Source of the DNA: Henriciella marina DSM 19595
GTDB taxonomy: Bacteria > Pseudomonadota > Alphaproteobacteria > Caulobacterales > Hyphomonadaceae
Length of the DNA stretch: 64,000 bases
NCBI RefSeq assembly: GCF_000376805.1
Contig: NZ_AQXT01000002.1
Span: 3,038,001-3,102,000 of the forward strand
Reading direction: 5' to 3'
Part shown: in pieces, positions 60,529 to 63,768 of the stretch
Position numbering within the stretch: position 1 is the stretch's first letter
Layout: each line of letters starts with the position of its first letter
Position numbers and translations under genes: made by a program
The notes under the pieces: generated by a model
Seen by the model: only the letters and a program-made list of their open reading frames with translations
Databases searched by the model: none
Told to the model about the DNA's origin: nothing

Positions 60529-61338
60529 CTAGCTCGATGAAACGATGCCGCCGTCGCACGGGATGGTGTGGCCGGAGATATAGGCGCCGGCGCGCGAGGA
60601 CAGGAACATGGCGAGGCCTGCAATGTCCTGCGGGGTGCCGACACGGCCGGATGGGTTCCCTTTGGCGACGGAGTCCCAGTCGACGCCTTCGGTCTTGCCG
60701 CCGAAACCGACGCCGGTCGACAGCATCCAGGTCGGGAAAGGCCCCGGCGCGATGCCATTGACGAGGATATGTTCGCCCACATGCTGGGAGGCCATGAAGC
60801 GCGTGAGGTGAATGACGGCGGCCTTCGACGTACCATAGGCATAGCCGCTGAAAGGCGAGGTGTGCATGCCGTCGATCGACGCGATGTTGATCACGCGGGC
60901 CGGATCATCGGCGCTGGCGGACTTGCGCAGCAGCGGCATGAGCTTCTGGAACAGGAAGAAGATGCCCTTGACGTTCACGTCCATCACCTTGTCCCAGCCG
61001 CTTTCTGGAAACTCCTCCAGTGTCGCGCCCCAGGCTACGCCTGCATTGTTTATGAGGACGTCGACCTTGTCTTCGCGCTTGGCGATCTCGTCAGCGAGAT
61101 GCTGAATGCCGACCATCTGGCCAACATCGGACGGGATGGCATAAATCTCACCGCCATACTGATCTTTCAGTCGTTTGACGGTCTCTTCGCAGGCATCGGC
61201 CTTGCGCGAGGAGATGATGACCTTGGCGCCATTGGCGAGATAGCCCGCCGCAAGCATCTCACCGATCCCGCGCGAGCCGCCGGTGATGACGACCGTTTTG
61301 CCCTTTACCGAAAAGAGATTGCTGAAATCATTGCTCAT
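60529..61338 (-). CDS. Short-chain dehydrogenase/reductase (SDR)
   Basis: A 269-residue classical SDR: NAD(P)-binding TGGSRGIG (residues 19-26), LINNAGV, catalytic Ser region IASIDGM, and YAYGTSK with the catalytic Tyr and Lys. Ends PCDGGIVSSS. Member of the fabG-like group, possibly acting on 3-oxoacyl or sugar substrates; not enough to assign. GGAGG precedes the ATG. It lies upstream of the methyltransferase on the same strand, with the toxin-antitoxin pair further upstream. Confidence 0.9.
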   Translation of the reverse strand: MSNDFSNLFSVKGKTVVITGGSRGIGEMLAAGYLANGAKVIISSRKADACEETVKRLKDQYGGEIYAIPSDVGQMVGIQHLADEIAKREDKVDVLINNAGVAWGATLEEFPESGWDKVMDVNVKGIFFLFQKLMPLLRKSASADDPARVINIASIDGMHTSPFSGYAYGTSKAAVIHLTRFMASQHVGEHILVNGIAPGPFPTWMLSTGVGFGGKTEGVDWDSVAKGNPSGRVGTPQDIAGLAMFLSSRAGAYISGHTIPCDGGIVSSS

Positions 61339-61409
61339 GGCGTGTCCTCCGCTTCGTTTGCTTCCTGCGGTTTGGAGGAGGCTTGCCGGGCTGGCAAGGG
61401 CAGTGGGCG

Positions 61410-61712
61410 TCAGTTGCCGAAGAACAATCGGGAGAGGGCGCGCTGAATTTCGTATTCGTGGGTGATAAGAGAAGCTACCCGGTCGCCGATCAGTTGCTTC
61501 GGAAAGGCAGAAAGCTGGTGCATCGCGAGAATGTATGACCGATCACTTATGACAGCTTCGATCGTTACAGATGGGATGGGTAATAGGGCCGTGTCAGCGA
61601 GTAGCGGCGCGACGAGGACTGCTGGTCCAGTATCCACATGGGGGTATTGGAGTAGCACGATCAACTGCTCCGGGTCGTCACTGATCTCGTGAACTGCGAA
61701 GCGCTCATCCAT
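61410..61712 (-). CDS. ccdB: CcdB-family toxin
   Basis: A 100-residue CcdB-like toxin that would poison DNA gyrase. The core LLQYPHVDTGPAVLVAPLLA, PIPSVTIEAVISDRSYILAMHQLSAFPKQLIGDRVASLITHEYEIQRALSRLFFGN follows chromosomal CcdB sequences; the C-terminal hydrophobic helix, where E. coli CcdB has its toxic Trp-Gly-Ile, ends in Leu-Phe-Phe-Gly-Asn, so activity needs testing. Start overlaps the antitoxin stop by one base (TGATG). Located upstream of the SDR gene on the same strand. Confidence 0.85.
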   Translation of the reverse strand: MDERFAVHEISDDPEQLIVLLQYPHVDTGPAVLVAPLLADTALLPIPSVTIEAVISDRSYILAMHQLSAFPKQLIGDRVASLITHEYEIQRALSRLFFGN

Positions 61713-62149
61713 CAGAAAAGTCGATACTTTTCGTTCCAGAGGCCGTGCTTCTTATAGTGCTCGTTCCAGCTCTCGATGGCTTCGCGATTTTCTTCCGAGA
61801 AGCGCTTCATGCGTTCGGTCTTCACAGCGCGCTCGACAGCTGCGCGTGCGATTTCTGCGGCATCAAGGCCGTAGGATGCGGCTTCTGAAATTAGGGCTGA
61901 ATCGATCTGCGTATGAACAAATGGGGCAGTCTCTTCTGAGAGGCCCGAAGTGGAGGGATCGGTTACGCCTAAAAGTTCAGCGGCGGTAACTTCGCCATGA
62001 GTGGCAGCCTCGATCCGCTTCGCAATGTCCGCGCGAGGCCGACGTGCTCCCGTCTCGTAGTGACGAATAGCAGCTTCCGATACACCGCATAGCCGCCCAA
62101 ATTCTTTGGACGTTAAATGTGCTTTCTGGCGCCATTCACGTAACTGCAT
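61712..62149 (-). CDS. ccdA: Antitoxin: XRE helix-turn-helix fused to CcdA
   Basis: A 145-residue protein with two DNA-binding modules. Residues 1-60 are an XRE-type HTH (LREWRQKAHLTSKEFGRLCGVSEAAIRHYETGARRPRADIAKRIEAAT). Residues 78-145 are a full CcdA antitoxin: ribbon-helix-helix like HTQIDSALISEAASYGLDAAEIARAAVERAVK and the CcdB-wrapping tail FSEENREAIESWNEHYKKHGLWNEKYRLF. Typical CcdA has only the second module. The ATG at 62149 lies inside a 31-bp palindrome and lacks a ribosome binding site, suggesting a leaderless mRNA. Autoregulation by the complex is expected. Confidence 0.85.
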   Translation of the reverse strand: MQLREWRQKAHLTSKEFGRLCGVSEAAIRHYETGARRPRADIAKRIEAATHGEVTAAELLGVTDPSTSGLSEETAPFVHTQIDSALISEAASYGLDAAEIARAAVERAVKTERMKRFSEENREAIESWNEHYKKHGLWNEKYRLF

Positions 62150-62173
62150 TCGTACAATTTGTACGAATGCAGT
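62143..62173 (-). promoter_or_regulatory. 31-bp operator palindrome of ccdAB
   Basis: ACTGCATTCGTACAA and its exact reverse complement flank a single central T (62158). The antitoxin start codon (62149-62147) is inside one arm. Perfect symmetry and position at the 5' end suggest the CcdA/CcdB repressor binding site and a promoter overlapping it. Confidence 0.75.
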
Positions 62174-62191
62174 GTATCGTGCAAGCAGAAA

Positions 62192-63601
62192 TCAGCCCGG
62201 CGAGATCATCTTGGACGGGTCGACGATGGCGTCGAAGTCGTCTTCGGGGATGCCGTCTTTGATGGCTTCTTCTTTCAGCGTGGTGCCATTCTTGTGAGCG
62301 TTCTTGGCAATCGCCGCGGCGCGGTCATAGCCATACTTTTCCTTGAGCGGGGTCACCAGCATGAGGGAGTTCTTCAGGCCGCGCTCGATATTGTCGAGGC
62401 GTGGCTCAATGCCGACGACGCAATTCTCGGTGAAAGACACGGCTGCATCTGCCAAAAGGCGGACCGACTGGAGGAAATTGTAGGCCATCATCGGGTTGAA
62501 GACGTTGAGCTCAAAATGGCCCTGGCTACCGGCAAAGCCGATGGCGGCATTGTTGCCGTGGATGTGGGCGCAGACCTGGGTGAGGGCTTCGCACTGGGTC
62601 GGGTTGACCTTGCCTGGCATGATGGAGCTGCCCGGCTCATTCTCTGGCAAGGCAAGCTCGCCGAGGCCGGAGCGCGGGCCAGAGCCGAGGAAGCGGATAT
62701 CGTTGGCGATCTTGAAGCAAGACATGGCGACCGTGCTGATCGCACCATGCGTGAAGACCATGGCGTCATGGGCCGCCAGCGCTTCGAACTTGTTTGGGGC
62801 GGTGCGGAAGTTGAGGCCGGTGATCTGGGCGATCTTGTCGGCGACCATGGTGTCAAAGCCCTTTGGTGAGGCGAGACCGGTGCCGACAGCAGTGCCGCCC
62901 TGTGCAAGCTCCATGAGCTTTGGCAGCGTCATCTCGATGCGCTCAATGCCATTGGCAAGCTGCTGGGCGTAGCCGGAGAATTCCTGACCGAGCGTGACAG
63001 GGGTCGCGTCTTGGGTGTGCGTGCGGCCGATCTTGATGATGTCCTTCCAGCTTTCGGCCTTGTCGTTGAGGGCATTGTGCAGCTGCTGCAGCGCCGGGAT
63101 GAGGCGGTGGGTGACTTCTTCTGCGCAGGCAATGTGCATGGCGGTCGGGAAGGTGTCGTTCGAGGACTGCGACATGTTGCAGTGATCGTTCGGGTGGACG
63201 GGCGACTTGGAGCCCAACTCACCGCCCAGGATCTCGATCGCGCGATTCGAGATGACTTCATTGGCATTCATGTTGGACTGGGTGCCGGAGCCGGTCTGCC
63301 AGACGACGAGCGGGAAGTGCTCATCGAGCTTGCCTTCCATCACTTCATCTGCGGCCTGAACGATGGCCTTGCCGAGCTTGGCGTCGAGTTTGCCGAGGGC
63401 CATGTTGGTCTCGGCGGCGGCTTTCTTCACGATGCCGAGGGCGCGAACGATAGGGGCGGGCTGTTTTTCCCAGCCGATCTTGAAGTTGCCGAGGCTGCGT
63501 TCTGCCTGCGCGCCCCAATACTTGTCGCCGGGGACCTCGACAGGTCCCATCGTGTCGCTTTCGGTACGTGGTTTCGGCTGCTTGTCGCCAAAGATGCCCA
63601 T
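62192..63601 (-). CDS. fumC: Fumarate hydratase class II
   Basis: Iron-independent fumarase of the TCA cycle: fumarate to malate. The 469 residues show [37 protein letters not shown], the catalytic His in [27 protein letters not shown] and the class signature [17 protein letters not shown] short N-terminal extension [15 protein letters not shown] is encoded upstream of the family start; the ATG at 63601 has GGAG 8 nt upstream. A start at 63712 lacks similarity and is rejected. Confidence 0.96.
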
Positions 63602-63768
63602 CGGGTCGGCTCCTGTTCGTGTGTCAGTTGAATAGTCGAGTACCGGGCGCTTTAGCATGGTCACCGAGAAGCGCAAAAGCGCGTTTGCGCCCGCGTGTCG
63701 CAGCGCCCGCACTTGTCGCCCGGCCTGCCGCCCTATCTATGAAGTCATGAGACGCGGAGGGGTATCCG

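What the first reader, a model, noticed from the sequence alone, without database searches (positions are those of the whole stretch)
61410..62173. ccdAB module with an XRE-CcdA fusion antitoxin and an operator covering its own start codon
CcdA normally has a ribbon-helix-helix DNA-binding domain plus the toxin-wrapping tail. Here a complete XRE helix-turn-helix domain precedes that whole unit. The 31-bp perfect palindrome (62143-62173) contains the antitoxin ATG, and there is no ribosome binding site, so a leaderless, self-repressing antitoxin gene is plausible. Two DNA-binding folds in one antitoxin could alter conditional cooperativity.
Basis: partly seen in the sequence, partly recalled or inferred. 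Interest (0 to 1): 0.66.

Follow-up and report, generated by a model that had tools for sequence, protein, structure and literature searches.

The report
Toxin–antitoxin with swappable repressor head
A marine bacterium carries a CcdA/CcdB-type toxin–antitoxin pair whose antitoxin wears a phage-repressor-like DNA-binding head, and related species keep nearly the same toxin at the same chromosomal spot while the head and the DNA site beside it have been exchanged together for unlike ones.

Summary
In detail: XRE–CcdA antitoxin (61712-62149, minus), CcdB homologue (61410-61712, minus), unique 31-bp palindrome over the start codon. Leaderless expression gains comparative support: of 19 head-fused ccdA genes found in the family, 16 have TTG at -36..-34 from the ATG and none an SD-like motif; RHH-only controls have 0-4 of 42-43 and 14-27. 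The window's own promoter scores weakly. "Two DNA-binding folds" is not supported here: the RHH strand is unrecognisable in this protein but kept in RHH-only sisters; some fusions keep it. All 11 of 29 Henriciella genomes with the module carry it just 3' of fumC, with seven head/operator kinds. Window and H. marina: toxin DNA 98%, fumC end 94%, operator plus head between them unlike; two other pairs show a like mosaic. Operators track head, not toxin; the toxin tree rejects single origins for both head classes tested. Best reading: a ccdAB locus whose promoter–operator–start–HTH cassette is exchanged by recombination, changing regulatory specificity while toxin neutralisation stays. Toxicity and DNA binding are untested.

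The parts
61410..61712 (-). CcdB-like toxin gene, 100 aa; C-terminus FFGN in place of F-plasmid CcdB's WGI
   Evidence: PF01845 33.4 bits; AF2 pLDDT 87.7; best PDB match CcdB 1vub, TM 0.89/0.91
61712..62149 (-). HTH-CcdA fusion antitoxin gene, 145 aa, predicted leaderless
61970..62149 (-). N-terminal XRE/HTH head (residues 1-60)
   Evidence: PF01381 residues 3-49; AF2 helices between 3 and 60; PHROG transcriptional repressor families, best E 6.6e-11
61910..61969 (-). linker and degenerate RHH-strand region (residues 61-80)
   Evidence: AF2 pLDDT <50 at 64-77; CcdA profile match starts only at residue 81
61715..61909 (-). CcdA helices plus toxin-binding tail (residues 81-145)
   Evidence: PF07362 47.3 bits, positions 7-71 of 71
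62143..62173 (.). 31-bp perfect palindrome over the start codon, presumed operator
   Evidence: unique in genome
62149..62167 (.). operator core TTCGTACA-N3-TGTACGAA shared with H. pelagia L002
   Evidence: found, exact, only at the antitoxin start of G000 and G021 among 29 genus genomes at up to 1 mismatch; the backward control pattern hit once in each of two other genomes
62179..62184 (-). -35-like hexamer TTGCAC, first base exactly 35 nt before the ATG
   Evidence: TTG at -36..-34 in 16 of 19 fused ccdA genes
61870..62195 (-). approximate exchanged cassette (promoter, operator, start, head, linker) compared with H. marina L004
   Evidence: identity 20-76% per 30-nt bin between about -50 and +280 from the ATG, 86-100% in bins on both sides save the last (70%)
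62192..63712 (-). fumC (class II fumarase; longest frame), conserved upstream neighbour marking the locus
   Evidence: PF00206 + PF10415; module 3' of fumC in 11 of 11 module-bearing Henriciella genomes
60529..61338 (-). SDR-family dehydrogenase, conserved downstream neighbour
   Evidence: PF13561/PF00106; follows fumC directly in two module-less genomes

Best explanation
A chromosomal ccdAB-type toxin-antitoxin operon in which CcdA's DNA-binding role has been taken over by an N-terminal phage-repressor-like HTH head. Expected working: the antitoxin dimer, held together by the remaining CcdA helices and perhaps the head, binds the palindrome, which overlaps the -10 region, transcription start and start codon, and represses its own leaderless mRNA; the CcdA tail wraps the CcdB-like toxin. 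With no leader or ribosome-binding site, promoter + operator + start + head form one compact cassette. At the fumC 3' locus this cassette has repeatedly been exchanged by recombination (crossovers near the fumC end and around codon 90 of the antitoxin), switching operator specificity while the toxin and toxin-binding tail stay. Shown by sequence: domain anatomy, palindrome, fixed locus, mosaic, association of operator with head. Inferred: DNA binding, autorepression, leaderless transcription, toxicity, and any selective reason for the exchange.
For: Domains. Locus fixed in 11 of 11 module-bearing Henriciella genomes, ATG 35-56 nt after the fumC stop. Mosaic in three pairs: L001/L004, L009/L010, L002/L006. 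Six pairs with toxin identity >=80% but different head class have operator identity 28-34%; 13 same-class pairs average 78% with toxin identity down to 33%; all 78 between-class pairs average 36%. Mantel, 14 sequences: operator~head rho 0.33 p 0.0016, operator~CcdA core p 0.56, operator~toxin p 0.37. Toxin tree of 23 rows: class D needs 5 changes for 5 members; AU test rejects one clade for A (p 1.1e-47) and D (p 1.7e-4), the two classes tested. TTG at -36..-34 in 16 of 19 fused genes, 9 of 10 head classes (binomial p 1.4e-12), SD-like 0 of 19; RHH-only controls 0-4 of 42-43 and 14-27; 5 of the 8 fused genes found after the pattern was noticed have it (p 3.5e-6). RHH strand: Pfam CcdA match starts at 5-10 in 10 of 12 fused proteins scanned with a match and at 3-4 in two; at 1 in 7 of 7 RHH-only sisters. 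Leaderless mRNAs are common in the alphaproteobacterium Caulobacter (375; PMC4117421, passages).
Against: The window's own promoter scores poorly (7 of 12 consensus positions, shuffle p 0.155; none found), as do L003, L004 and L008. Operator and head are adjacent, so shared history could be linkage alone and does not prove binding. Head identity keeps weak association with toxin (rho 0.24, p 0.015) and CcdA core (rho 0.18, p 0.04). The class C operators agree only 45%. Some fusions keep an RHH-like strand (L010, L136 by Pfam; L170-L172 by eye), so loss is not universal, and a late profile start is not confined to fusions: of 28 RHH-only class matches, 24 start at 1, two at 2, one at 5 (L039), one at 35 (L043). 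AF2 was a monomer from 11 sequences (pTM 0.39). Head classes were assigned by me from the alignments; HTH matches are below Pfam cut-off for class D, L011 and L061, with PHROG support E 7.7e-5 for class D. Flanks of the second and third mosaic pairs are noisier (bins down to 63-66%).
Confidence: 0.72

Rival explanations
1. Two working DNA-binding folds: HTH and RHH both contact DNA, giving bivalent operator binding and altered conditional cooperativity.
For: L010 and L136 carry an HTH plus a better-kept CcdA strand (Pfam starts 3 and 4); L170-L172 keep strand-like stretches by eye.
Against: In the window protein the CcdA match starts at 7/71 and the AF2 monomer shows no strand before the first CcdA helix; the strand region varies and has indels across fusions; operator identity does not track the CcdA core.
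Confidence: 0.1
2. Non-toxic relic: the CcdB homologue is no longer a gyrase poison and the pair now works as a repressor with a corepressor.
For: The WGI end linked to F-plasmid CcdB toxicity (PMC7905540 passages) is FGN here; 0 of 46 partner-toxin tails extracted by length and ending pattern, a few of them doubtful, have W third from the end. A truncated Photorhabdus CcdAB-like pair was reported non-toxic (same passages).
Against: Toxin fold confidently CcdB-like; frame without stops in 11 of 11 Henriciella modules and the tail conserved, so the protein is likely under constraint; W is also missing beside RHH-only alphaproteobacterial CcdA, so its absence may only mark the lineage.
Confidence: 0.3
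3. No cassette exchange: operator and head simply evolve very fast in place.
For: Classes A, B, C and E are XRE heads 40-51% identical, so some could be divergent relatives.
Against: 98% toxin DNA identity with 20-76% operator/head bins between 86-100% flanks; class D heads recur, with 66-90% operator identity, beside toxins as little as 33% identical, in two genera; AU rejections.
Confidence: 0.06

Closest known systems
F-plasmid CcdAB and its chromosomal homologues
   Same: gene order, CcdA-type toxin-binding tail, CcdB fold, antitoxin as presumed autorepressor
   Different: extra HTH head with loss of the recognisable RHH strand, predicted leaderless start, toxin end FGN rather than WGI, exchangeable operator/head
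HTH antitoxins (HigA, HipB, MqsA)
   Same: HTH-type DNA-binding domain (grouping in PMC4803016 passages); HigA and HipB among weak structural neighbours (E 0.046 and 0.061; no match at E <= 0.001)
   Different: different toxin-binding part and toxin family
Controller (C) proteins of restriction-modification systems and phage repressors
   Same: small XRE HTH; leaderless transcript stated as common for C proteins (PMC4824078 passages); P22 c2, C.Kpn2I and C.Csp231I among weak structural neighbours (E 0.035-0.10)
   Different: here fused to a CcdA tail that presumably binds a toxin
HicB and COG2442/PIN antitoxins fused to alternative DNA-binding domains
   Same: an antitoxin part carrying different DNA-binding domains (PMC2701414 passages)
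   Different: those are compared across genomes and families; here heads and operators change at one orthologous locus beside nearly identical toxins
Panacea hyperpromiscuous antitoxins
   Same: modular exchange within a TA pair (PMC8832971 passages)
   Different: there the toxin partner changes; here the toxin stays and the DNA-binding head changes

Membership tests
CcdA antitoxin (PF07362) | match to the CcdA profile over the gathering score | tested here: met
   47.3 bits against 22.4, positions 7-71
CcdA antitoxin (PF07362) | N-terminal RHH beta-strand for DNA contact | tested here: not met
   profile positions 1-6 unmatched; 7 of 7 RHH-only sisters match from position 1, 26 of 28 RHH-only class matches from 1 or 2
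CcdA antitoxin (PF07362) | neutralises the adjacent CcdB | not testable with these tools
   needs co-expression
CcdB toxin (PF01845) | profile match and CcdB fold | tested here: met
   33.4 bits against 28.6; 1vub TM 0.89/0.91
CcdB toxin (PF01845) | C-terminal W-G-I linked to gyrase poisoning | tested here: not met
   ends FFGN; of the three only G is invariant in the genus
CcdB toxin (PF01845) | poisons DNA gyrase | not testable with these tools
   needs assay
XRE/HTH_3 repressor domain | Pfam HTH_3 over cut-off | tested here: met
   40.6 bits against 23, residues 3-49
Leaderless autoregulated gene | promoter elements placed to start at the ATG, no SD | tested here: inconclusive
   comparative support strong (16 of 19 fused genes, SD-like 0 of 19); the window's own promoter score is weak
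Leaderless autoregulated gene | mapped 5' end at the ATG | not testable with these tools
   needs 5'-end mapping

The most novel reading that the evidence does not exclude
The fumC-3' locus is a regulatory-specificity switching locus, a toxin-antitoxin counterpart of phage immunity types: selection favours rare operator/head types, for example to escape shared repressors carried by incoming elements or phages, so heads taken from repressor-like genes are exchanged while toxin and neutralising tail stay constant.
Probability: 0.35. Interest if true: 0.82.

Novelty: new variant of a known kind. Interest (0 to 1): 0.64.

Why it matters
Antitoxin modularity is usually inferred across families. Here close species hold the same locus with almost the same toxin and unlike heads and operators, a natural domain-swap experiment. 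It makes testable whether autoregulatory specificity is under diversifying selection, whether CcdA works without its RHH ribbon, and whether leaderless starts ease the capture of repressor domains. It would also give matched sets of CcdA variants with separate operators for bench work.

Tried and rejected
Free-standing or mobile donors of the heads: the antitoxin has no tblastn match in the plasmid or phage collections at E 1e-3 and no relative in viral contigs. The class D head occurs in 3 of 29 genus genomes, all as fused genes. The window's head had HTH-only relatives L012 and L013; not followed.

Operator core in viral contigs: 5 contigs, one (L103) ahead of a phage HTH gene. Treated as chance, because nothing tied them to Henriciella; no control was run.

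Defence-system reading: PADLOC at E 0.01 gave matches to the head only (capH, RmrA, HTH_VI, mad1, control protein) and none to the toxin. Not pursued.

RNA reading: in fumC read-through RNA the AUG would be fully paired in a hairpin in the window, L006, L007, L009 and L010 (P 1.00 at each base), mixed or weak in the other six. Not general, so left as a side prediction.

Faults to weigh: L064 was given to Pfam out of frame (0 families), so its HTH nature is by eye only. L004, L007, L119, L120, L170-L172 and L175 were not scanned with Pfam. The 19 fused genes are a lower bound: one search listed 92 matches, loci came for the best 30, and I fetched only 9 more, chosen mostly for long open frames. 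The 46 controls were chosen as non-fused by eye, so 46 of 46 is no measure of prevalence; the class scan is (below). In one search control row L027 was mis-anchored (anchored rightly it has no such TTG and has an SD-like motif), L034 and L043 were left out, one or two of 44 rows dropped out, and control start codons are uncertain, so four ways of choosing them were counted. The tree and operator table were made before L170-L172 and L175 were found; one search also leaves out L136; L061 and L064 are in none of these sets.

Full report
Observation. The two reading frames, their domains and the palindrome are as described. The antitoxin ATG lies 42 nt after the fumC stop on the same strand. In a module-less relative (L074) fumC is followed by a 10-pair terminator-like hairpin; none was found on the minus strand in window 61300-62400.

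What organism. The window is therefore most likely from a Henriciella species; its own record is not named.

One locus, many heads. Of 29 genus genomes held, 11 have the toxin, and in 11 of 11 the antitoxin starts 35-56 nt after the fumC stop. Nine of the 11 have an SDR-gene match within 1.5 kb; G015 and G014 do not. Of 17 module-less genomes with a fumC hit, G020 and G008 have the SDR gene directly after fumC, G018 and G025 have another gene between, and 13 show no SDR match within 1.5 kb. The antitoxins share the CcdA core but fall into seven head types by my grouping: A window/L002, B L003/L004, C L005, D L006/L007/L009, E L008, F L010, G L011. A sister genus adds L119 (C), L118 and L175 (D), whose upstream sequence reads by eye like the fumC end, L120 (D), where it does not, and L136; another genus of the family adds L170-L172. 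Outside the family L061 (Acetobacteraceae MAG; HTH matches below cut-off) and perhaps L064 (Roseococcus) look fused too.

How common. In an even sample of 289 genomes of the class, 25 have CcdA, 29 matches in all. The window's is the only fused one seen: 27 others scanned with Pfam show no HTH family at E 1e-3, and L026, broken by a stop, was not scanned. So fusion is rare in the class and concentrated in this family.

Mosaic. In 30-nt bins, window versus H. marina is 86-100% up to the fumC end, 20-76% from about -50 to +280 around the ATG, then 86-100% through CcdA core, toxin and SDR start (last bin 70%). L009/L010 and L002/L006 show the same trough (36-70% and 30-50%) with noisier flanks, down to 56 and 66% in single bins. 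Toxin DNA identities of the three pairs are 98, 95 and 92%. The window versus H. pelagia L002 shows the reverse: related head and operator (mostly 56-80% bins), toxin only 46% identical as protein.

Operator follows head. The comparison over 14 sequences gives the double dissociation listed under evidence. Within class D the sites keep partial to full dyad symmetry, with apparently matched changes on both arms in L118 and L120 (by eye). Adjacency means linkage alone could give the association; it supports, but does not prove, recognition by the head.

History. On the toxin tree of 23 rows the nine labels need 11 changes (least possible 8): class D 5, and A, B and C 2 each; well-supported branches force at least 4, 2, 1 and 2. 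Several inner branches are weak and long branches are flagged (L011 with L120), but one clade is rejected for A and D, the two classes tested.

Leaderless start. Across the 19 fused genes found in the family, TTG begins at -36..-34 in 16, against 18 of 1425 other positions; no SD-like motif (AGGA, GGAG or GAGG in about -20..-4) in any. It holds in 11 of 11 Henriciella genes, where it was noticed, and in 5 of the 8 found later. RHH-only controls mostly lack it. The -10 position is less regular, and the window's is poor.

RHH strand. Fused proteins with a CcdA match start at profile positions 7, 6, 10, 9, 8, 8, 9, 3, 5, 10 and 7, 4; RHH-only sisters start at 1 (7 of 7); of 28 RHH-only class matches 26 start at 1 or 2, L039 at 5 and L043 at 35. 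The AF2 monomer gives head helices between 3 and 60, a low-confidence linker at 64-77 and CcdA helices from 84. So in this protein the head is most likely the only DNA reader, the CcdA helices serving dimerisation and the tail the toxin.

Toxin. The CcdB fold is confident. The F-plasmid WGI end is missing here and W is missing in the 46 extracted alphaproteobacterial tails, so target and potency are open.

Literature. Seen: listings of ten searches and passages of PMC2701414, PMC7905540, PMC12457610, PMC4117421, PMC4803016, PMC8832971, PMC4824078, PMC7354431 and PMC10886550. In these I saw antitoxin families with alternative DNA-binding domains and toxin-partner swapping, but no HTH-CcdA fusion and no same-locus exchange of operator plus head. 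The library lacks most subscription papers, so absence there is weak. 'Henriciella' with 'toxin-antitoxin' gave one paper, on casposons by its title.

Verdict. An ordinary family at heart (ccdAB) with an unusual, well-supported evolutionary behaviour: a replaceable regulatory head plus operator at a fixed locus, coupled to a probable leaderless start. New variant of a known kind.

Noticed in passing
L079 and L081, just after the fumC stop: In two module-less Henriciella genomes a different gene (153 and 152 aa, alike by eye) sits between fumC and the SDR gene; the fumC 3' end may be a small insertion site.
   Followed up: partly
L084, just after the fumC stop: A 252-aa frame with a P-loop-like motif (by eye) follows fumC in G022.
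   Followed up: no
window 62105-62194, minus strand: In fumC read-through RNA the palindrome would form a hairpin that pairs the antitoxin AUG (P 1.00), so an mRNA starting at the ATG would leave it free. Same in 4 of the other 10 Henriciella loci.
   Followed up: partly
L136; L010; L170-L172: HTH-CcdA fusions that keep an RHH-like strand; possible intermediates and real candidates for two DNA-binding folds.
   Followed up: partly
L012 and L013: Free-standing HTH proteins of 74 and 72 aa resembling the window's head, in genomes without the toxin; possible donors.
   Followed up: no
L177: G012, a Henriciella-group genome without the fused module, has an RHH-only CcdA with its own CcdB-like neighbour.
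   Followed up: no
L026: A CcdA homologue interrupted by an in-frame TAG.
   Followed up: no
G000 contig C1: By subtraction the genome has a second contig of about 3.8 kb, perhaps a small plasmid or leftover.
   Followed up: no
L103:10932-10950: The operator core occurs 65 bp ahead of a phage HTH-like gene in a viral contig; probably chance.
   Followed up: partly
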